A DNA stretch of 64,000 nt from Jaminaea rosea (lineage: Eukaryota > Basidiomycota > Exobasidiomycetes > Microstromatales). Shown here piece by piece: positions 43,086 to 53,915 of the stretch. The stretch's first letter is position 1, and the number at the start of each line of letters is the position of its first letter. The notes beneath the pieces are model-generated. The model searched no databases. It worked only from the letters and a program-made list of their open reading frames with translations, and had not been told where the DNA came from. Location: positions 310,001 through 374,000 of the forward strand of contig NW_020289984.1 in assembly GCF_003144245.1 (NCBI RefSeq). Direction: 5' to 3'. A program made the position numbers and the translations under genes.

Positions 43086-43685
43086 ATGCTTCACCTCACT
43101 CTGCTCAGCTTCGTCGCGGGCCTGGCTAATTTCCCAGTCGCGTTGGCCCACCACGCATACTGCTCCTGGGCGTACGTGCCTGGCTCGCCTGCGGACAGCG
43201 GCTTCACGCGCCACTGTCTTGCGCCCAAGATCTACATCGACAGCACCCACGCTCAGTATAAGTGTCTGGAAAGGCAGGTCGTGGCCGATTGGGGCTATCT
43301 CCGACCGTACACCCTTGAATTTGGTGAGCCTCGGCAAGGGACAGCGCAACGTGACCGGACTGCTCATGCTTTCTTGACCTCCCTTCTCGCGCGGCAGCCA
43401 CGCCCTGCGGGGACTCTGGCTATGCGCTGAGGGTCCATCATAAGCATCATCACTGCGACCACGACGTCTGGGCCCTCTGCAACGCCACCGCTCAGGCCAA
43501 CGACCCTCAGGGCTACAGGTGCTACTATATGAAATCTCATGACGATTGTACGTCCCGCTCGGCGCGACTCCCTCACGTGTCCATGCCCCGCGCTGACTTT
43601 GTGTTGCATCTTCTCAGGCGAGTGGCCTCTCACCTTCGAGAACCAGGATGACCTGCCTGCGGCCGTTGATGTCTGGCATCTTTGA
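43086..43685 (+). CDS. Array member 1: secreted 8-cysteine protein (subtype I)
   Basis: Exons are 43086-43323, 43398-43547 and 43618-43685, giving 151 residues with a signal peptide (about 1-21, ending VALA). The eight family cysteines are present: AYCSW, RHC, YKC, TPCG, HHC, ALC, YRC, DDC. The end EWPLTF...AAVDVWHL matches the family C-terminus. It belongs to the subtype with TPCG and CEW rather than ACP and LWP. A His-rich patch (HHKHHHCDHD) lies in the middle. The intron before the VDxxDD block, present in seven relatives, is absent here, so exon 2 runs through YMKSHDD. Function unknown; a secreted effector-like role is inferred from size, signal peptide and clustering. Confidence 0.8.
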
Positions 43686-43952
43686 GGAACAGGCGCAGCA
43701 GTGAGGCGGCCCGCTCGCTACCTTCTCAAAATCGTCGCTGGTCGACGTTGAGGGCAGTGGTAGGCAGTACGCACGTGTGCTCCATCACGACTTCATTGCT
43801 CCTAGAATTTGAAGATTATCACCATTCGACTGCTCACAGATGTTGACGGCGTGGCACACGGCGCAAGAAGCGCTTCTCATTCGATGCCCAGCTTTGCGCG
43901 CTCTTCTACTACAGTACGTACGGTAGCTTCAGGTTCCTGCGTGTCCTCTTCC
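43686..43952. other. Spacer between members 1 and 2
   Basis: About 270 bp; the two genes face each other here with convergent 3' ends. No feature seen. Confidence 0.4.
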
Positions 43953-44564
43953 CTAGAACACACAACCGGGCTCCATGATACCACAACCGAAGTCGCCGTC
44001 CCCAAAGATGTCCAATCTTTCGGGCAGCGCAAGGAAGGTAAACTTGCCCGGCCATTCGCCTGCGAATGCGAGTCGGATGAGCTGTGAACCATGATACTCC
44101 CCTGCAACTTCTGAACGTGTACGAACAGTCATCTTTGCCATTCAGGTAGTAACAATGGGCTGTGTTCTGGTGAGGCAGCACGGCCTTAACCCAGCAAGCA
44201 GCCCAATGTTTGGATCGACATCGCCCGGTGCGCTTATAGTCCCAGCCGTGACGGGAGCAGGGGGAAGCTGCGAGAAGGGTGACCATCAGGTTGTCGTTCA
44301 ATGCATAGCTTTCGCAGAGCTCTTGCTTCATGACTGACCAATCTCGACAATGTCTGGCCTGAGGTGTCCCCACGACGCTGTCTCCGTGTAATCATTAGCT
44401 GTTTGCCACACCGCATGTGTCTTGTTCTCCCTGAATCCCTCCGCATTTAGAAAAAAATTGAAGCCATGGTCGGTGGGGAAGCCGTCCATTTCCCAAAAGC
44501 AGGTGACGTGCTTGGCGAGAGCAGGTAGGAAGAGCAGTGTGGCAGGACTGATCCAAAGAGCATC
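43953..44564 (-). pseudogene. Array member 2: divergent, inverted copy (subtype I)
   Basis: The - strand carries a family member in opposite orientation. Coding blocks are about 44564-44339 (HVTCFW, HGFNFFLN, THAVWQ, ASWGHLRPDIVEI), 44267-44127 (ASPC, GRCRSKHWAAC, TAHCYYLNGKDD) and 44059-43953 (CEWPGKFTF to the stop). The frame is consistent over both introns. A hydrophobic, signal-like stretch (ALWISPATLLFLPALA) precedes the mature part, but I find no ATG in that frame, so it is either missing its start or begins in an exon I cannot see. Cysteines 2 and 3 of the family are both absent, and two extra cysteines occur near the C-terminus. As in member 1, the micro-exon is merged with exon 2. 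Confidence 0.5.
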
Positions 44565-44910
44565 TTGTCGCGTCGGTGGCGGGAAAGCTCTGGCATTACC
44601 GTAGAGGGCTTGACAGTCGCGGGTGTAAAGACGAAGGCTGCAGCCTTGAACCCATCGCTTTCTCGCTTTGGCATACTTTGCTCAATGACCGGAAAGCTCG
44701 GCCGCTTATGTCGCACGTTCGCAGCACCACACTCGGTGGATTCTACTCGGTTGCTTTGCCTCTGACGTACTGTAGGCAGCGAAGGGCAGCGATGTGTGAT
44801 TGCCTCAGCAATGCTTGCTCCAAGTTGACTTCGGGATAAGGTGGAGACGACGGCGGGCCGAACGAACTTCTCTTCCACCTCAAGAGGACCATCTCATCCG
44901 AACGCCCAGC
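44565..44910. other. Spacer between members 2 and 3
   Basis: About 350 bp between divergent genes, probably their shared upstream region. Nothing specific seen. Confidence 0.4.
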
Positions 44911-45537
44911 ATGCAGCTTCCCCTCACACTCATGCTCGTCGGCTTCCCGGTCGTGCTTGCTAGCGTCCCTATCTTCATGTGCTCGTGGAAAATTTCTGAT
45001 GGATCTCCCGAACTGGTCGGCTTCGAGTGGTGGTGCAACGCCGAGAAAAAGATCACGAGCAACGCTACTGCTGACTACGCATGCCACTATGTCGACCGCG
45101 TCGCCGACTTTGGAGCTCAAGGCTTCGAAAAGCAGCTGCGATTCCGGGCCGCGTGTCCTCACGAGCGCAATGATGGCTGGGGCTACACCTCCTGGCATAG
45201 CTGCGGCAATCCTTGGGCAGTCTGCGTCGGCGCCAATGGACCCAACGATAAGCCTATCCAATGCTTCGTGAGAATACTGTAGCGGCGACGCAGGGTATTC
45301 ATCGTACAGTACAGCACTGACGCGCATGCGCTCTTCCTCCACTCCAACTCGAAGTGGGTCGACAAGAATGATGACTGTAAGCGTCGACCCCAGAGAAACA
45401 CTGAGCTCGGCCCCGAGAGAGATTCTCATCGAAAAGTTTTAAATCGCTGACCATTCGGTCCTGCAGGCCTTTGGCCGACCACATTCGATTCTGCTGAGGC
45501 CGCACCTAGTATGGTACAGATCTGGAATAAGAAGTGA
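44911..45537 (+). CDS. Array member 3: secreted 8-cysteine protein (subtype II)
   Basis: Exons are 44911-45267, 45355-45376 (22 nt) and 45467-45537, giving 149 residues. Signal peptide about 1-18, then VPIFMCSWK. All eight cysteines are present (CSW, WWC, YAC, ACP, HSC, AVC, IQC, DDC), with VADFG, NDGWGY, NGPNDKPIQC and SMVQIW near the end. Relative to its siblings, the first intron (between LRF and AAC) is cleanly missing while the intron around the micro-exon remains. Residues CSWKISDGSPE replace the commoner CSWKPFTDSPE. Function unknown. Confidence 0.82.
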
Positions 45538-45797
45538 AAGTGGGTCATAAGAACCAGGATGGTTCAGTCGTGGCACAGATCAATCTACACTATCTAGACA
45601 CTCCAGCGCTTCTATGCCTGCTGATAATGCTCAACTGTGCCCGCTTGCGCCTGAAACACGGCCTGCCGTGTAGCATCGTGAAGCTGTCTTTTGTCTTTTG
45701 CCATTGCCGTCAGTCAGTATAGGAAGGCTCCGTCACGGCTCGTCGACTTTACTCTGCGCCAAAGCGTACCGCCGTATGCGTCCTTGTTGTACTGTAC
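45538..45797. other. Spacer before the relic
   Basis: About 260 bp with no supported gene. Confidence 0.4.
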
Positions 45798-45885
45798 AGT
45801 ACGTCAATCGCGTCGCAGACTATGGAATCCCCGGCTTCGAAAAGCAGATACGGTTCCGTGCTGCGTGCCGAGGAGACTCGCCGGC
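45798..45885 (+). pseudogene. Array relic: short fragment of a family member
   Basis: About 88 bp translate as VNRVADYGIPGFEKQIRFRAAC, split here as VNRVADYGIPGFEK and QIRFRAAC. This matches member 3 (VDRVADFGAQGFEK, QLRFRAAC) closely, including the junction where the first intron is missing. The rest of the gene is not recognisable on either side. It is a fragment of a duplicated copy related to member 3. Confidence 0.7.
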
Positions 45886-46310
45886 CGAAGAGCGAGGCGC
45901 AGTCATGCAACATACTGGTTGTGAACACTCTGACAGCACTTTATCATGCCTTTGTTCCGTATGTGGATACCTACAAATGAGGTCCAATCATACGCTCATG
46001 GGCTGCTGTCTCTTACGCTCATGCCACTGACCGGCTGATCCTAATGCTTTGTTACTCGGCATATACGCTTCTGACGGGCGGACAGGAGCTGCGGGACATC
46101 TCGATAGTCAGCTGACGGGCACCTTTGGATCAATAGAAGAACGGTCAAGCCGACAGCCGACAGTTTTCGTGCACATCTTGCTGGACCAGCGCTTTGCTGA
46201 GGCAATGCGAAACAGACGGCGCTGTCTCCCGATCCACAGATTCTGACCGGTAAGAAGGCTGCTTTGGTCTGATACAGGATTGTATCCCTTCTCCTCCCAA
46301 CACACCTGAG
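45886..46310. other. Spacer before member 4
   Basis: About 425 bp. No further family sequence recognised; promoter of member 4. Confidence 0.4.
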
Positions 46311-46978
46311 ATGCAGATCATCCTCTTACCTCTCGCTGTGATCGCTGCGGCAGCGTCGGCAGTGCCAATCTTCATCTGCAGCTGGCGCCCCTTCACGGAC
46401 AGCCCAGAGCTACACAACTTCGAGTGGTATTGTAATGCACAGAAGCGTACGGTCAACAGCTCGCATGCTATCTACAATTGCGATTCTGCTCGTTGGCACA
46501 ACGTCGCCGACTTCGGATATCTCCTCCCCTTTGAAGACCTGCTACGATTTCGTGAGTCCAAAAGCGTGGCCGGATGTCTACGAACAGCTTTTCATCACGT
46601 GTCGCGCAGGTGCTGCTTGTCCAGTTGGAAGAGCAGACGGCTGGGGTCTGGGTGGCTTTTCCGACTGCTACAGCCAGACGTGGGCCGTGTGCATTGGCAA
46701 TAATGGACCTCACGACAACCCCATCCAGTGCTACGTGAGCGTGACCACGCGCTCGCCCAGCTGCTACCTTTCCACTGATCCTCCGCGTCTGACTCCTCTC
46801 TCTCAGCTAGTCGACAGGCACGATGATTGTGAGCCCACTACCGCGTGATAGACTCACTCAGCTGTTCGCTCACGTCGGCCTGCTTCCTTGTTTCTGCTCA
46901 GGTGTGTGGCCCAAAATCTTTGACAATGCTGAAATGGCTCCGGTCCAAGTGCAGGTCTGGAAGCAGAAGAAGAGTTAG
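46311..46978 (+). CDS. Array member 4: secreted 8-cysteine protein (subtype II)
   Basis: Exons are 46311-46551, 46610-46734, 46807-46828 (22 nt) and 46902-46978, giving 154 residues. Signal peptide about 1-17 (LLPLAVIAAAASA). The mature chain opens VPIFICSWRPFTDSPELHNF and has all eight cysteines: CSW, WYC, YNC, ACP, SDC, AVC, IQC, DDC. DLLRF, ADGWG, IGNNGPHDNPIQC, LVDRHDD and APVQVQVW are typical. Intron phases are 1, 0 and 1. Closest to member 5, with which it shares TDSPELHN and WYCNAQK. No enzyme or toxin motif is visible; function unknown. Confidence 0.85.
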
Positions 46979-47310
46979 AGGGAAACAGTAGTAAGGAAGC
47001 TCTGTGTGCAAGTACTCGCCGTCTTCGGCTCATTTTTATAGCTTTTGCTTCCATCTGACGCGCTCGTTACATCTTTTCATGCCTGGTCACCGTGATCACC
47101 CAACGACCCATTGAACTGCCTACTGTAGCACCCAAGGACCATTTGTCAGCCTTGAACCCCTGGGCAGCATCGAGTCAACGGAGGCTGCGTGAATGCAACC
47201 TGCCGTCGTAGCTTTTGCTCGTAGGAGAACAAGGCGGGCGGAAGAGAGGAAACGGAGGCGAGCGTGAAGAGCTTGACTTCTTCGTTGGTCTCCCTCAAGA
47301 CGCGCTTGTC
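46979..47310. other. Spacer between members 4 and 5
   Basis: About 330 bp; 3' flank of member 4 and promoter of member 5. Confidence 0.4.
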
Positions 47311-47996
47311 ATGCGAATCCACATCGTCGCTAAGGCTCTCCTCCCCGCCGTCGCCATCAAGTTCATATCTCGCGTGACAGGAACTCCCATCTTTCTGTGC
47401 TCGTGGAAGCCATTCACGGACAGCCCGGAGCTTCACAATTATCGATGGTACTGCAACGCACAGAAGGAGATCATTGATGATCATGCAGCCCAGTACAGGT
47501 GTGACAGGTCGCGTGGGGAGAATGTGGCCGATCTGGGGTCTTTCACTCCTCTGACTGACCTGCTGCGATTCAGTGAGTTGGCGGCTGCCTTCTACGTGCG
47601 CCGACAATGCGCTGACCTGACCGCGCTGGCAAAGAGTCAGCTTGTCCCACGGATCGACGTGATGGCTGGGGCTACCAGCACGAGATGTGCCAAGGGGAGC
47701 ATTGGGCTGTTTGTTTGGGGGATAACGGACCTCACGATCACCCCATCACATGCTACGTGAGACCGGACCGCGATCGTCTATCGCAACCGCAGAAAGCTCT
47801 GAGATTCTGACTGAGACACCTTGTTCCTCTCGCAGTACGTCGATGCGAGGGACGACTGTAAGTTTAACTCTTCGAAGCCGGCTTGATTTGCAGACAGGCT
47901 GCTCACTCTCGGCTTTGATCAGGCTTGTGGCCCGATAGCTTCAACAACTCTCAAGTCGCCCCTGCGCAGGTGCAGGTGTGGAGCGAGAAGTCCTGA
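47311..47996 (+). CDS. Array member 5: secreted 8-cysteine protein (subtype II)
   Basis: Exons are 47311-47572, 47635-47756, 47836-47857 (22 nt) and 47923-47996, giving 159 residues. The N-terminus (ATG at 47311) is hydrophobic with several basic residues, a somewhat weaker signal peptide than in its siblings. Mature motifs: TPIFLCSWKPFTDSPELHNY, WYCNAQK, YRC, DLLRF, ACP, RDGWGY, EMC, AVCLGDNGPHDHPITC, YVDARDD, APAQVQVW. Eight cysteines are conserved. The acceptor of exon 2 (47634) is a CAAAG; it is the only choice that keeps frame with ACP. Probably a recent duplicate of member 4. Confidence 0.82.
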
Positions 47997-48344
47997 ACGG
48001 GCACGCATGGCATCGCTAGGCATTCAGTGTTGAGGTCATGACCTAGGCAACTTTGAGATCCTCCTTGAGGGAGAGTTGGCATCTGCGCGGTCAGACTGGA
48101 GCCAATCCCTACCGGCCGGACCTTCGCCTGCGGCGGAATTAGCGTAGCCCAGGAGGCAAAGTGTGGAGAGACAGATAGGCCATAGAGTAATCTCCAGCAG
48201 GCAACGTGACCGCCGTGCAACATTTCCGATCTCGCGACCGCAAAGGAAACGGGGTGCAAGCAGCAAAAAGCAATGCTGCAGCTCAGCGTGCCGTGCCTCG
48301 TTCTACCTTCCTTCACACTCTCGCTGGACATCGCTCCTAAGATA
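47997..48344. other. Spacer between members 5 and 6
   Basis: About 350 bp, nothing distinctive; promoter of member 6. Confidence 0.4.
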
Positions 48345-49041
48345 ATGACGATGCTCCTCCTCGTTGTGCTCTTTACGGGCGGCCTCTTCACTTCTGTGCT
48401 TGCCGTGCCCATCTTTGTCTGCAGCTGGCAACTGACAACCGAATCACCGGAGCTGCATGGGTACGACTGGTTCTGCGATGCAGACAAGCAATCGGTCAAC
48501 GCGAGCCACGCGCAGTACATGTGTAATGGGAGGCATTGGGATCAGGTTGCCGACCTTGGATTTGTGGAGCCGACGCGCGACCTTCTGCGATTCCGTAAGT
48601 CGGCCGCATCAGGCTCACTCGTCGTACCTATGCTGACGCTGTCCCCCATGCGCGATCAGGTGCCGCTTGCCCGGAAGGCCAAGACCGTAATGATGGCTAC
48701 GGCTTCACGTATGAAGAGGCTTGCGTCAGCCAGAATTTTGCGGTTTGTCTGGGCAAGAACGGCGCCAATGACAGCTCCATCCAATGTTTCGTGAGTGGGC
48801 ACCGAGCTGAAAGCCATTTCTTCTGCTCGAGGTTGTACCAACCGGCTGATGCGACTTCCGCCTCAGTGGGTCGATCGTCGCGACGATTGTGAGTCGGCAC
48901 CGCCAATCACCTTCAGCAGCTCTGACACTCATCCGCTCACGCGCAACACGCTTTCTGTTGACTCGCATAGGTCTATGGCCGAAGTCCTTCGGCAGCTCAG
49001 CGGAGGCTCCAAGCCTGGTGCAGATCTGGAAACAGAAGTGA
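48345..49041 (+). CDS. Array member 6: secreted 8-cysteine protein (subtype II)
   Basis: Exons are 48345-48594, 48660-48790, 48867-48888 (22 nt) and 48971-49041, giving 157 residues. Signal peptide about 1-20 (TMLLLVVLFTGGLFTSVLA), then VPIFVCSWQLTTESPELHGY. Cysteines: CSW, WFC, YMC, ACP, EAC, AVC, IQC, DDC. DLLRF, RNDGYGF, LGKNGANDSSIQC, WVDRRDD and SLVQIW fit the family. A second ATG two codons on (48351) is equally possible. A longer in-frame start at 48273 would bury the signal peptide and is rejected. Function unknown. Confidence 0.84.
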
Positions 49042-49163
49042 TGGCCAGAGCGGCGGGACTTTGTCCCGCTCAAAGGGCAGAAGCAGGCGATTTTGCGGTG
49101 ACATACGCAAAGCGCACGAACTTTGAGCGCGAATGTAAAGCGAAGCAGAAGACATTCTTATCA
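49042..49163. other. 3' flank of member 6
   Basis: Short spacer between member 6 and the decayed-looking gene on the other strand. Confidence 0.4.
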
Positions 49164-50187
49164 TTATAGAAGGGTATGATAAGTCCTGTTTCGGTTGAAT
49201 TGAAATCCTGCAATCCAGGCAACGAGCGTGGGGTATACGCGGAGGAGGCTGACGCCTTTGGCCAGCGCGGCAGCCTTGGCCCCCGCTGGGAACTCGAAGA
49301 TAGCTCCGTCGAGATAGGCTTCGCCGCGGAGCCAATTGAAGGGAGCAAAGAGAAGACGAAACCGTAGGAGTTGATGCGATCCAATTCGGCCATGTTGAGG
49401 GGCAGGACAAGGCCCCTTGGATCGAGAAACTTGTCGTCACCTACGTGCCGCGCTCTCAGGAGATTGTAGTACACGATTTGACGGGTGATATGGTGTAAGG
49501 TATCGCTGATATGGATATGTGTGTGACTGGGCTCTTGATGCTGGGTGCCTCTAAAGGAGACGACGACGGCTGTCGCTACAAACAAGCCCCTGCTCACCCT
49601 CTGGGAAGCGACTGCACTGGAGAGTTCCGGGACCCGTGGACGGGCCTGAGGCGGCCTGCTGTTGGTGGAAAGTGCCGGCACCCGTCGATGAGCGCTTGCG
49701 AGCGGTAGAGCTGACGCCGCCTTGAGCGGGCTCCGGGCGTATTCCAATGATGGACGCGAAAAGGCGGCTGTGCTTGATCCTGCCAATCAGCTTGAGCGCA
49801 TGTTGGCGGGCCGACCATTGGCGAGCGTGATCGCGCTCAGCGAGAGCTTTGCGACGGATCTCCTGCGCAACGGTGATGAGCTCGTCGATTGTGTTGAGTG
49901 TGATGAGCTCGGCCAAAGCCACAGGACGCATCCGCCCTTCTTCTGCGACCGGTTAAAGGGAATTCGGTCTTGCCTTCGCCTTCTTGCTTGCGCCTCTGCC
50001 GCCCTGCTTCGGTCAGCCGCACAAATGTGAGCTTATTGCCGCAATCCTGGCGGTTATGGTTCCTCCTTAGCAAGGCCCTGAGCCGAGCAAATTGGAAATA
50101 TTGACTCGAACGAGGCTGAGCGCTGAGCGCAACGGGAGCATACTGGTAGGTACCATTGGGTGAGGTAGCACGGCTCTCCATCTTCAT
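49164..50187 (-). pseudogene. Decayed-looking unrecognised gene inside the array
   Basis: Three blocks on the - strand read like real protein but sit in different frames. The first, near 50187-49990, has FARLRALLRRNHNRQDCG. The second, near 49931-49680, has ELITLNTIDELITVAQEIRR and ARQHALKLIGRIKHSRLF. The third, near 49470-49164, has DDKFLDPRGLVLPLNMAEL, then FAPFNWLRGEAYLDGAIFEF and a stop. No clear introns connect them. I do not recognise the protein. It is unrelated to the cysteine-rich family and interrupts the regular spacing of the array. It could also be a gene whose introns I failed to place. Confidence 0.3.
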
Positions 50188-50935
50188 CCGGTTCGAAGAG
50201 CGTTGGAAGCGATATGCCGTCTTTCTCTCGCATCGATGGTGCTCCCTAGATTCCTACTCGTAATGCAGATACTCGTGCCCGCGGCCGCCTATTCCGAGAT
50301 TAGACTGGGCACGACGCCCAATAGTGGAGGACGAGGGTTGCTGCGATGAAAGGATGAGAGTGATGGAGAAGAAAGAAGGGAGATCAGATGCGGAGTCGAC
50401 ATGTCGCTTTCGACCTTGCCTGTCCGCACTCGAGGTCTGGATCGCGGATTGCCGTGCACGGGCCCTCGCGCAAGCAAACGTCGTGCCTGCAGGGCAAACT
50501 GGTGTTTGCAATCGCCTCCGCACCTCGCGACTTTGAGATCACACTCGACAGGACGTCTTCTGCTCCGAAGATCGAGACTGGAAGACGAAGGACTGCAAGG
50601 GTACCATGCGAAGATGAGTGAGTAACTCTGGCTCGCAACGCGCTGAGTCGGACTTGCTCGACACGAGGAGCGCTTGGCTGCGCAAAACAACGTGGCGTGC
50701 CGGGGCGTGATCTCGCCGATTCGGGATACCCTCTCCTCCCAAAGAGATCCCAGCGAGGGCCGTCTGGCATCGTGACCTGTCTCATGACCACTAGCATGAC
50801 CTCGGACAGGCTACACCGACATGGCGAGCGCAAGGCCGGAGGCGCCCGCAGGCGAGTGCGAAAGGCATTAGAGGAAGATGCGATCTTCGTCGAGCTGGTC
50901 CATCCTCCATCCATCCAACTTCTCACCAAGTCACG
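50188..50935. other. Spacer before member 7
   Basis: About 750 bp. Several overlapping frames on both strands without conserved features. Promoter of member 7 at the right end. Confidence 0.4.
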
Positions 50936-51641
50936 ATGCAAGTAGCCATGATTCATGTCGCTGTGATCCTTGCCGCTCACATCGCTGCGTCGGCAAGCGG
51001 GAGAGCCGTCCCAGTCATCTTCTGCTCCTGGAAGCCCTTCACCGACTCGCCCGAGTCGCACGGGTACCATCAATACTGCAGTGCCGAAAAGCAGACATTC
51101 GATGACACGGCCGCATGGTACAGCTGTGACGGTCACCAGGACACGCAAGTTGTGGCTGACATTGGCTTCTTGGACCCCTTTCCTGACTTGCTACGCTTCA
51201 GTGAGTTGATTGCAGCCCGTCCCCTTCGGTCGTTCCCCATCAACAAGCGTTTGATTGAGAAACTGACCTCCTCGCACTGCTAGAGGCAGCATGCCCAAAG
51301 GACAGCCAAGATGGCTGGGGCTACAAGGCCACTCGCTGCCAAAGCGAGGCCTTCGCCGTCTGTCTCGGCGGCGGCAGCCCTCACCAGGAACCAACCGCCT
51401 GCTATGTGAGCCTACCGTGGCCGAACAATCAGACCGAGGTCGTGTCATCTGAGAGCCTCTCCCAATCCAGGGCGTCGACGCGAGCGATGACTGTAAGCAC
51501 GAGCCGAATCGGGAACATTGGTCCATCTCTCGCCCAGCAGATACCTGACCCCTGGCCCCTCTATCAGGCCTATGGCCTAGTCGATTCAGTAGTCCCAAGC
51601 AAGCTCCCGCGCAGGTGTCGGTCTGGAAGCAGAAGCAGTGA
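50936..51641 (+). CDS. Array member 7: secreted 8-cysteine protein (subtype II)
   Basis: Exons are 50936-51200, 51284-51405, 51471-51492 (22 nt) and 51568-51641, giving 160 residues. Signal peptide about 1-22 (VAVILAAHIAASAS), then VPVIFCSWKPFTDSPESHGY. Cysteines: CSW, QYC, YSC, ACP, TRC, AVC, TAC, DDC. PDLLRF, QDGWGY, GVDASDD, LWPSRF and APAQVSVW are conserved. The NGPHD loop is altered to GGSPHQE. A later in-frame ATG at 50948 is possible. Function unknown. Confidence 0.84.
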
Positions 51642-52127
51642 TGCAATGGGGCTTCCGATGCTGGCAATCACCGACATTTCCTCCAACTCCTCGAAGACCT
51701 TTACACTACACGACAGCCCGGCGAATGGGAGCACGACTATCCTGCCTAGTGTGACCGACACGTTGCAATGCACGAGATCAAGCATCACCCTCGAGCCCGT
51801 CGAAGCTGATGCTGTCTCGCCGCCGGCGTGTTGCCTGGCCCTGTGGCTGTTGTCTCTACGAGCGTGATCCCCCGATGGGCGGCTGTTCAGGGTGGTCATT
51901 GGCCCAAACCGATCATGCCTATATCAAACGTCCCGTGAGCGCCACCTCGCCGATATTGGGGTCTCTTATGCTTGGCCCTAATGAGCGCCACGGTGGAGCT
52001 TGCCACGCATAGGCTGAAAGCAAAGAGGCAAGTCAGAGAGACTCCAGACCACAAAAGCGCGAGCAGCACCCCCTACTTTCTCTTCTTTCGCTGTCACTTT
52101 CTTCTGACTCCGCCCGCCACGCCTACG
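51642..52127. other. Spacer between members 7 and 8
   Basis: About 490 bp, no supported gene or relic seen. Confidence 0.4.
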
Positions 52128-52812
52128 ATGCTCCTCGCCCTTCACATTCTCCTTCTGATGCTCATGCGTCTCGCACTGGCAGACCCTCCCCTTGTAGCCT
52201 GCTCATGGAAGCCCTTCACGGACAGCCCCGAAAATCACGGTTATCGTTGGTTCTGCAACGCGCAGAAAAAGCAGCTCGACGGCATACGTGGAGAGTACAG
52301 GTGCGACGACAAACATTGGGCGACCGTGGCCGACATCGGATACGTCGAGCCTTATTTGGTGCTGTTGCGTTTTCGTTAGTACGCTTTTGTCATGGGCCAG
52401 CAGTTTGAAAGCTGATGTCACATCTCCCGCGCGCCCGCAGTGGCTGCCTGTCCTGATGAAACCAAGCGAGAGAATGGCACAGCTACAGGGTATGGTTGGA
52501 CTGACTGGTCTACGTGCTTGTCAAGGTCTTGGGGAGTCTGTCTGGGCAACAACGGACCTCACGACAGTCCCATCCAATGCTTCGTAAGTGGACGTGTCAG
52601 GTGACGCGTCGTGATCTGACCTTGCGCTGACTCCGGCGCCTCTTCTGGGCCCGACCAGTTTGTCGACAGAAAGGATGATTGTCCGTGCGCAACCCGTTGC
52701 CATTGAGAACAGACGCTGACATTAGCTTGCAACGTGCTCAGGTGTGTGGCCCGACAACTTCGGCGCCGTCGAGAAGGCCCCGTCTCAAGTCCAAATCTGG
52801 AAAGAAGGGTGA
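52128..52812 (+). CDS. Array member 8: secreted 8-cysteine protein (subtype II)
   Basis: Exons are 52128-52374, 52441-52583, 52659-52680 (22 nt) and 52742-52812, giving 160 residues. Signal peptide about 1-18 (LLALHILLLMLMRLALA), then PPLVACSWKPFTDSPENHGY. Cysteines: CSW, WFC, YRC, ACP, STC, GVC, IQC, DDC. The loop after ACP is longer than in siblings (about six extra residues, ending GYGW). FVDRKDD, VWPDNF and SQVQIW complete the pattern. The donor after the micro-exon is GTCCGT, away from the GTRAGT consensus. The phase and the next exon still fit the family exactly. Confidence 0.82.
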
Positions 52813-53253
52813 CCGGAGGATGAAGGCAACCGACAGCGCGGCAGTCATGTCCCGACCAACACTCTTCGAGAAGAGCTCTTCACCTTTGAGAAGCCAATGA
52901 TATACGATTGCACCTTACAGCGCTGCGTCTACTCTTGTGCCGTACGGCCCATTGCCGACCGTTCTTGCCAAAACAGCCGCTGCGGTAGTTTTGTCCGTGG
53001 CAAGAAATCCCGAGCGAGTACATCCGCTGACATCGTGTGTCTTCGCGTTCGACGCCAAGCCATACCGACAACTTGCTCCTCAGCAAAGCACCGGCCGTCG
53101 AGGCTCTCGACCAATCAGCCCTGTGACCCTCCTTGGTCAGCTCTTGCTTCTGAGCAGGCAAGAGCATGAGCCAATCGAGAACGTTGCCTTGCCTCCTCTC
53201 TTCAGCCCCCCCTCCCCCCCACTTCCCTCATGCATCACGCCTCCGACCTCAGA
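52813..53253. other. Spacer between members 8 and 9
   Basis: About 440 bp, ending in a C-rich run before member 9. No feature seen. Confidence 0.4.
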
Positions 53254-53915
53254 ATGCTGCAGCATGGCCTCCTCCTTGCTTTCATAGCTGCCATCCCTTT
53301 CGCCCTCCTCCCCATCGTGCATGCGGCTCACACCATCTGCTCCTGGTCTCCTGGTCCCCTCAATCCAGACAAGTACAACTTCACAATGTACTGCGAGGGA
53401 AAAGCGGAGAAGATGAATATGACCTACTACACCTACGGGTGTAAAAGGACGGGTAGGGAGTTGGCTACTTGGGGCATTCAAGGGCCGGGCAAGCTGAACT
53501 TCAGTGAGAACCTTCCATGCGGGATACAGCGGCTCGCTGATGAAGCGAGGTTCTTCTCACGTAGACACACCTTGCGGGAAGAACGGGTTCGCTTTGCATT
53601 ACAAGCCTTTTTACTTGAAACCGTCTTGTCACCAGGTATTGTGGGCCTTCTGCATTAGGCCGGAAGGGGCTACGGCGGAGACGGTCAATTGCAAGGTGAG
53701 ACGTGAGCGAGCGCTGAGGAGGAAGGTGCTCTTGCTGACCTCGCTTGATTTGCTGCAGTACATGAATTCGTGGGATGACTGTAAGTGCTTGACGCCACGG
53801 TCAGAGTCTTTCAGCAGCTGACACCTTCGCTCGCGTCTGAGCAGGCGAGTGGAACACGCCTCTCAAGGAATCCGATATCCCTGGCTTCGTTGATGTCTGG
53901 TCCTTGCACAAGTGA
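53254..53915 (+). CDS. Array member 9: secreted 8-cysteine protein (subtype I)
   Basis: Exons are 53254-53503, 53565-53695, 53759-53780 (22 nt) and 53845-53915, giving 157 residues. Signal peptide about 1-24 (LLLAFIAAIPFALLPIVHA), then AHTICSW. Cysteines: CSW, MYC, YGC, TPCG, PSC, AFC, VNC, DDC. The end EWNTPL...GFVDVWSL pairs it with member 1, at the opposite edge of the array. Unlike member 1 it keeps the separate micro-exon (YMNSWDD). A longer start at 53230 is possible but puts charged residues before the hydrophobic core. Its stop lies 146 bp from the stop of the convergent aminotransferase. Confidence 0.82.

What the first reader, a model, noticed from the sequence alone, without database searches (positions are those of the whole stretch)
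43086..53915. Tandem array of a secreted eight-cysteine protein family
Eight whole genes, one divergent inverted copy and one relic encode 149-160 residue secreted proteins. They share eight cysteines in order (CSW; xxC; YxC; [A/T]CP or TPCG; C; A[V/L/F]C; xC; DDC), plus DLLRF, DGWGY, NGPxDxPIQC, VDxxDDC and a C-terminal QVQVW motif. They sit between housekeeping genes with 0.3-1.9 kb spacers. Clusters of small secreted proteins in smut fungi (for example the mig2 direct repeats of Ustilago maydis) often act on the plant host, so an effector role is a reasonable inference. I do not recognise this motif set as a named family.
Basis: partly seen in the sequence, partly recalled or inferred. Interest (0 to 1): 0.85.

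Follow-up and report, generated by a model that had tools for sequence, protein, structure and literature searches.

The report
Giant leaf-yeast family of secreted proteins
A row of small secreted proteins with eight conserved cysteines is one outpost of a family of about ninety genes in a leaf-dwelling relative of the smut fungi; they probably bind molecules of other organisms on the leaf, but what they bind is unknown.

Summary
Window 43086-53915 holds eight intact genes, an inverted decayed copy and a probable relic of an eight-cysteine secreted family. The genome is Jaminaea rosea, a phylloplane fungus of the Microstromatales, not a smut pathogen. Genome-wide I modelled 80 genes; 9 further loci are partial or decayed and 3 only seen as hits, about 90 in all. 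No curated family or solved relative matches by sequence, except one chance-like hit on a fused public model. Two introns recur at one position and phase on four contigs; arrays on C20 and C4 and one C7 gene lack both, a state probably reached at least twice. AlphaFold models of two members are all-beta; TRAF domains and the Fusarium effector Avr2 are among the nearest solved structures, too weakly for membership. Cysteines 2+3 and 4+5 tend to be lost together. Where measurable, paralogues are old and constrained. An effector-like role is plausible but unproven; plant versus microbe target is open.

The parts
43086..43685 (+). gene A, 151 aa, 2 introns; identical to public protein P0002
44116..44543 (-). 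inverted decayed copy B: two pieces (44543-44337, 44280-44116), no in-frame ATG up to 44760, cysteines 2 and 3 missing
44911..45537 (+). gene C, 149 aa, 2 introns (first family intron absent)
   Evidence: public model P0001 uses another acceptor
45785..45937 (+). probable relic of a C-like copy
   Evidence: weak by profile (10.8 bits, within the shuffled range)
46311..46978 (+). gene D, 154 aa, 3 introns
47311..47996 (+). gene E, 159 aa, 3 introns
48345..49041 (+). gene F, 157 aa, 3 introns
50936..51641 (+). gene G, 160 aa, 3 introns
52128..52812 (+). gene H, 160 aa, 3 introns
53254..53915 (+). gene J, 157 aa, 3 introns (165 aa if the ATG at 53230 is used)

Best explanation
The window holds one of eleven clusters (two or more genes each) of a very large secreted-protein family, so far seen only in Jaminaea rosea and in unnamed samples, within the limits of the searches. 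SHOWN by computation: a hydrophobic N-terminal signal, no membrane-like segment afterwards, eight conserved cysteines, mostly same-strand arrays of diverged paralogues, two shared introns, and intronless lineages. PREDICTED: an all-beta, sandwich-like domain. INFERRED: disulfides lock it; the proteins are exported to the leaf surface or apoplast and act by binding, with a stable scaffold and variable surface stretches (the C6-C7 segment above all, and outward positions of the C2-C3 segment) choosing the partner, so that the genome keeps a repertoire of binders aimed at other organisms on the leaf. I put plant targets and microbial targets at roughly 0.3 and 0.25.
For: Hydrophobic N-terminus in 79 of 80 models; a TM-like segment after the first cysteine in 0 of 80. 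Cysteine columns are filled in 73-80 of 80 models, 69 of 80 have all eight, and C7-C8 spacing is 8 in 78 of 78. Both AlphaFold models (pLDDT 79.7 and 80.0; pTM 0.72 and 0.74) have strands throughout the mature part. Predicted-strand columns are less variable than the rest (2.13 vs 2.62 bits, n 55 and 64, p 0.022), and C6-C7 is the most variable segment. In six pieces matched to close relatives in unnamed samples, 15 of 436 residues differ from the first cysteine on, against 21 of 122 before it, so the mature proteins seem kept by selection. No Pfam or NCBIfam match below E 0.003 except one on a fused public model (8, 8, 7 and 38 proteins scanned, not all 80). J. rosea is a leaf-surface fungus that grows as filaments on Tween 40 (PMC7766764, passages).
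Against: No expression, binding or phenotype data exist here. J. rosea is not described as a pathogen in what I read. In some epiphytic Ustilaginales yeasts effector clusters are shortened or lost (PMC7870139, passages), so a large plant-facing expansion would be unexpected. The fold match to effector structures is weak and tied with unrelated beta-sandwiches. The second most variable segment, C2-C3, is mostly strand in the model, so variability is not confined to loops, and the strand/other contrast is modest. Nothing excludes a role on the fungus's own surface.
Confidence: 0.55

Rival explanations
1. Endogenous role: the proteins coat or remodel the fungus's own surface, or bind nutrients, glycans or mating partners; many copies give condition-specific versions.
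For: J. rosea is described as a phylloplane fungus, not a pathogen; mature sequences are strongly conserved between samples (15 of 436 differences); UniRef calls P0001 'Cyanovirin-N domain-containing', which would be a lectin.
Against: No lectin, wall or enzyme profile matches convincingly in the proteins scanned (one of 38 touches the yeast PIR repeat at E 0.28); so many divergent copies (median pairwise identity 33%) are unusual for a structural protein.
Confidence: 0.25
2. Antimicrobial repertoire: the proteins inhibit competing leaf microbes.
For: An epiphytic yeast close to smut fungi antagonises another leaf microbe with a secreted protein (PMC7870139, abstract and passages); small, cysteine-rich, many variants.
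Against: Predicted mature pI is low (median 5.5; under 7 in 69 of 80), unlike cationic membrane-active peptides; no killer-toxin profile was listed and nothing below E 0.001 among viral structures.
Confidence: 0.25
3. Diverged members of the ToxA/Avr2 structural group of plant effectors, inherited from a smut-like pathogenic ancestor and expanded.
Confidence: 0.2
4. Mostly dying gene copies without function.
For: Four loci look decayed: window B, the window relic, and two on C20 near 171761 and 177502; 11 of 80 models lack one or more cysteines.
Against: 69 of 80 models keep all eight cysteines; dN 0.36-0.53 where dS is saturated (10 of 15 pairs) or 1.7-3.0; mature part conserved between samples.
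Confidence: 0.03

Closest known systems
ToxA-like effectors (ToxA, Fusarium Avr2, AvrL567)
   Same: Small, secreted, predicted beta-sandwich; weak structural nearness to Avr2 and ToxA; expanded families with this predicted fold are reported in Venturia inaequalis and Puccinia graminis (PMC9632046, passages).
   Different: No sequence similarity found; eight conserved cysteines; a fungus not known as a pathogen; structural match far below certainty.
Mig1/Mig2 proteins of Ustilago maydis
   Different: Mig1 group: four conserved cysteines, two disulfides. No protein named as U. maydis returned. Mig sequences were not at hand for direct comparison.
Cyanovirin-N lectins
   Same: UniRef name given to P0001.
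   Different: No cyanovirin profile listed for the members scanned (that Pfam holds one is recalled) and no cyanovirin structure among the rows shown.
Class I cytokine receptor domain (Pfam IL6Ra-bind)
   Same: C-x-W motif; P0004 scores 26.4 bits against a cut-off of 24.3.
   Different: P0004 is a public model that fuses two neighbouring genes (C10:220193 and C10:219281); 2 of 38 members of A2 match, best E 0.003. Taken as chance.

Membership tests
ToxA-like effectors | beta-sandwich with the ToxA/Avr2 strand order | tested here: inconclusive
ToxA-like effectors | action on a plant host | not testable with these tools
   no expression or infection data
Mig1 group | four conserved cysteines forming two disulfides | tested here: not met
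   eight conserved cysteine columns, each filled in 73-80 of 80 models; Mig1 features from PMC12503489 (passages)
Mig1/Mig2 | sequence relatedness to U. maydis Mig proteins | tested here: inconclusive
   no protein named as U. maydis among the hits, but the search needs shared 5-residue words and missed P0002, itself a row of the query
Mig1/Mig2 | induction in the plant | not testable with these tools
   no transcripts available
Cyanovirin-N | match to the cyanovirin profile | tested here: not met
   not among listed Pfam families for 8, 7 and 38 proteins; HMMER filters may hide very weak matches
IL6Ra-bind (PF09240) | profile score above the curated cut-off in ordinary members | tested here: not met
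   of the proteins scanned only the fused public model P0004 passes; best E 0.003 among 38 members of A2
small secreted cysteine-rich protein (descriptive class) | signal peptide, small size, many conserved cysteines, no membrane segment | tested here: met
   149-160 aa in the window; 79 of 80 hydrophobic N-termini, 0 of 80 later TM-like segments; simple hydropathy, not SignalP

The most novel reading that the evidence does not exclude
A leaf-surface fungus, distantly related to Ustilaginales yeasts some of which have shortened or lost their effector clusters, has instead built about ninety copies of one disulfide-locked beta-sandwich binder, with much of the growth in intronless arrays that look like amplified retrocopies. 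That would be a ToxA/TRAF-like scaffold used for commensal life or microbial warfare rather than disease.
Probability: 0.2. Interest if true: 0.8.

Novelty: new variant of a known kind. Interest (0 to 1): 0.6.

Why it matters
Expanded families of small secreted proteins on a shared fold are usually read as a mark of plant pathogens. Here about ninety loci of an unnamed family sit in a 16.6 Mb genome of a leaf-surface fungus not described as a pathogen in what I read, whereas some epiphytic Ustilaginales yeasts are reported to have shortened or lost their effector clusters (PMC7870139, passages). Much of the family seems absent from the public protein set: the three searches returned five Jaminaea rosea proteins, one of them a fusion and two spliced differently from the family's conserved introns, and two genes used as queries (D and a C20 gene) were not themselves found. 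It offers a family that could be removed cluster by cluster to ask what such repertoires do where no disease is known.

Tried and rejected
Profile and structure look-ups that gave nothing convincing: Pfam and NCBIfam on the eight window proteins, Pfam on further members, PDB sequences, Foldseek PDB and BFVD (model 1 only). No cyanovirin or killer-toxin structure appeared in the rows shown; that is absence from a list, not exclusion.

Literature: no paper describing this family showed up in the listings of searches of the open library (listings only, capped). The original J. rosea genome paper (recalled, not read) did not appear in them. PMC12866564 on phyllosphere yeast genomes has no mention of Jaminaea or effectors (find). 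PMC4836707, PMC8405466 and PMC8880017 (passages) did not bear on function.

Positive selection was considered and dropped: pairwise dS between the core window paralogues could be computed for 5 of 15 pairs only (1.7-3.0). The spread of the family beyond Jaminaea could not be settled: the homologue tool works by shared words, and it missed P0002 although P0002 was itself a row of the query. P0011, P0013 and P0014 were compared too but are distant (34 of 62, 75 of 119 and 81 of 120 residues differ from the first cysteine on) and were left out of the orthologue count.
Full report
WHAT IS THERE. Spliced models give eight intact genes between 43086 and 53915, with proteins of 149-160 residues and GT...AG introns. 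Two acceptors are AAG rather than YAG, those of the second exons of C and E; both are unverified. An inverted copy (44543-44116) lacks an in-frame start up to 44760 and cysteines 2 and 3. A probable relic lies at 45785-45937. First exons score 62.7-84.0 bits against the family profile, and the best of 20 shuffled windows is 12.6. The relic (10.8) and several short last exons fall inside the shuffled range, and the profile includes the window genes themselves. The flanks are ordinary genes.

WHERE IT IS. The window is G000:C10:310001-374000. J. rosea belongs to the Microstromatales and is described as a phylloplane fungus (PMC7766764, passages).

HOW LARGE THE FAMILY IS. Three protein queries against the whole genome gave 75 (E <= 10), 89 and 90 (E <= 0.1) exon-level matches. 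From 19 fetched stretches plus the window I took 80 gene models as near complete: 33 on C20, 25 on C10 outside the window, 8 in the window, 5 on C4, 4 on C14, 2 on C2, 2 on C1 and 1 on C7. One of them (C20:196838) has no placed start codon and one (C20:202969) looks degenerate. Nine further loci are partial or decayed: three on C20, one on C2, two on C10, one on C1 and two in the window. Three more on C10 (near 420450, 526667 and 544762, the last at E 0.009) were hit but not fetched. That makes 92, or about 90. The search tool calls such counts lower bounds. Splice models outside the window come from an automatic finder; seven intron-bearing ones lack a cysteine and may be wrong there.

PROTEIN ANATOMY. 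A hydrophobic start in 79 of 80, a later membrane-like stretch in 0 of 80, and a median of 25 residues before the first cysteine. The eight cysteine columns are filled in 80, 79, 77, 73, 77, 80, 78 and 79 of 80 models; 11 of 80 lack one or more. Other near-invariant positions are the tryptophan after C1 (71), a proline (79), A of VAD (76), DD before C8 (79 and 77), W after C8 (79) and a late proline (78). Mature pI is mostly acidic (median 5.5; under 7 in 69 of 80). Median pairwise identity from C1 is 33%.

DISULFIDES. Some copies lose two neighbouring cysteines: C2+C3 in window B and in C20:212467, C4+C5 in C20:201547. C20:202969 lacks C4, C5 and C7. Against this, C4:1015372 lacks only C3. 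Four C2 and C10 models lack C4 alone, one C10 model C3 alone, one C2 model C4+C5 and one C1 model C7+C8, but those seven may be splice errors. In the gene A model C2 and C3 fall on consecutive strands two residues apart, as in a hairpin; I had no coordinates to measure. I infer C2-C3 and C4-C5 bonds; C1, C6, C7 and C8 are left to pair.

HISTORY. Two introns are shared in position and phase: one before C4 (33 genes, phase 1) and one inside the C8 codon (38 genes, phase 1), on four contigs: C10 with the window, C2, C14 and C1. A third is confined to seven window genes, and a fourth to nine genes (two on C1, seven on C10). Members on C20, C4 and C7 lack both shared introns. One clade for C20+C4 is not rejected (p-AU 0.40), but adding C7 is (p-AU 0.033), and C7 joins window genes C-H (support 100/99). 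The groups were defined by contig and intron state, but the test was run after the tree was seen. Clean absence of both introns in two places suggests loss through mRNA copies; this is inferred, and the root of the tree is unknown. Two sister C20 genes carry an intron at a new place, which suggests a gain after loss. The window array is mixed: C-H form one clade (99/88), and all eight as one clade are rejected (p-AU 0.031). Only 132 columns support the tree, and 37 of 76 inner branches are open.

SELECTION. Among the core six, dN is 0.36-0.53. dS could be computed for 5 of 15 pairs (1.7-3.0, ratios 0.14-0.27); the other ten returned no value, as at saturation. In six pieces matched to unnamed samples, 21 of 122 residues differ before C1 and 15 of 436 from C1 on. 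The relatives of A, C and D have the same recorded longest contig length, 7,339 bases, so they probably lie together there as here. This reads as constraint on old copies, not a recent burst.

FUNCTION. Nothing enzymatic or housekeeping matches in the proteins scanned. The most economical reading is a secreted, stable scaffold with variable surface stretches kept in many versions, that is, a binding repertoire facing other organisms. Published work proposes such scaffolds for effector families (PMC9632046, passages). The organism's leaf-surface life leaves plant and microbe as targets. An endogenous role remains open.

NOVELTY. I found no curated family, no solved relative and, in the listings of searches, no paper describing it. 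The kind (an expanded small secreted protein family) is known; the sequence family, its size in a fungus not known as a pathogen and the intronless arrays are new as far as these searches reach.

Noticed in passing
P0001, P0004, P0005 (public J. rosea proteins); window 44911-45537 and 53254-53915; C10:219281-220795: Three of the five public family proteins returned look misannotated: P0004 fuses two neighbouring genes, P0001 and P0005 use splice sites that break the family's conserved intron positions. Gene D and a C20 gene used as queries were not themselves in the hit lists, so much of the family seems to be missing from public sets.
   Followed up: partly
C20:181353 and C20:182250 (minus; L034): Two sister genes beside the intronless C20 genes each carry one 84-base intron at a place where no other member modelled has one: a possible intron gain after loss.
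   Followed up: partly
L034:3351-6431 (+) and L036:7426-10000 (+): Two large genes with F-box-like and YccV-like domains (one also transglutaminase-like) lie beside C20 arrays.
   Followed up: partly
window 49042-50935: The 1.9 kb gap between genes F and G holds no piece of the family at profile level; its reading frames were listed but not examined.
   Followed up: no
C14:85659 and C14:86988 (L048): Two divergent members with C-terminal extensions of several dozen residues, on a long branch of their own.
   Followed up: no
P0013, P0014: Two full-length relatives from unnamed samples, far from any window member and without the tryptophan after the first cysteine: a sign of further diversity outside this genome.
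   Followed up: no
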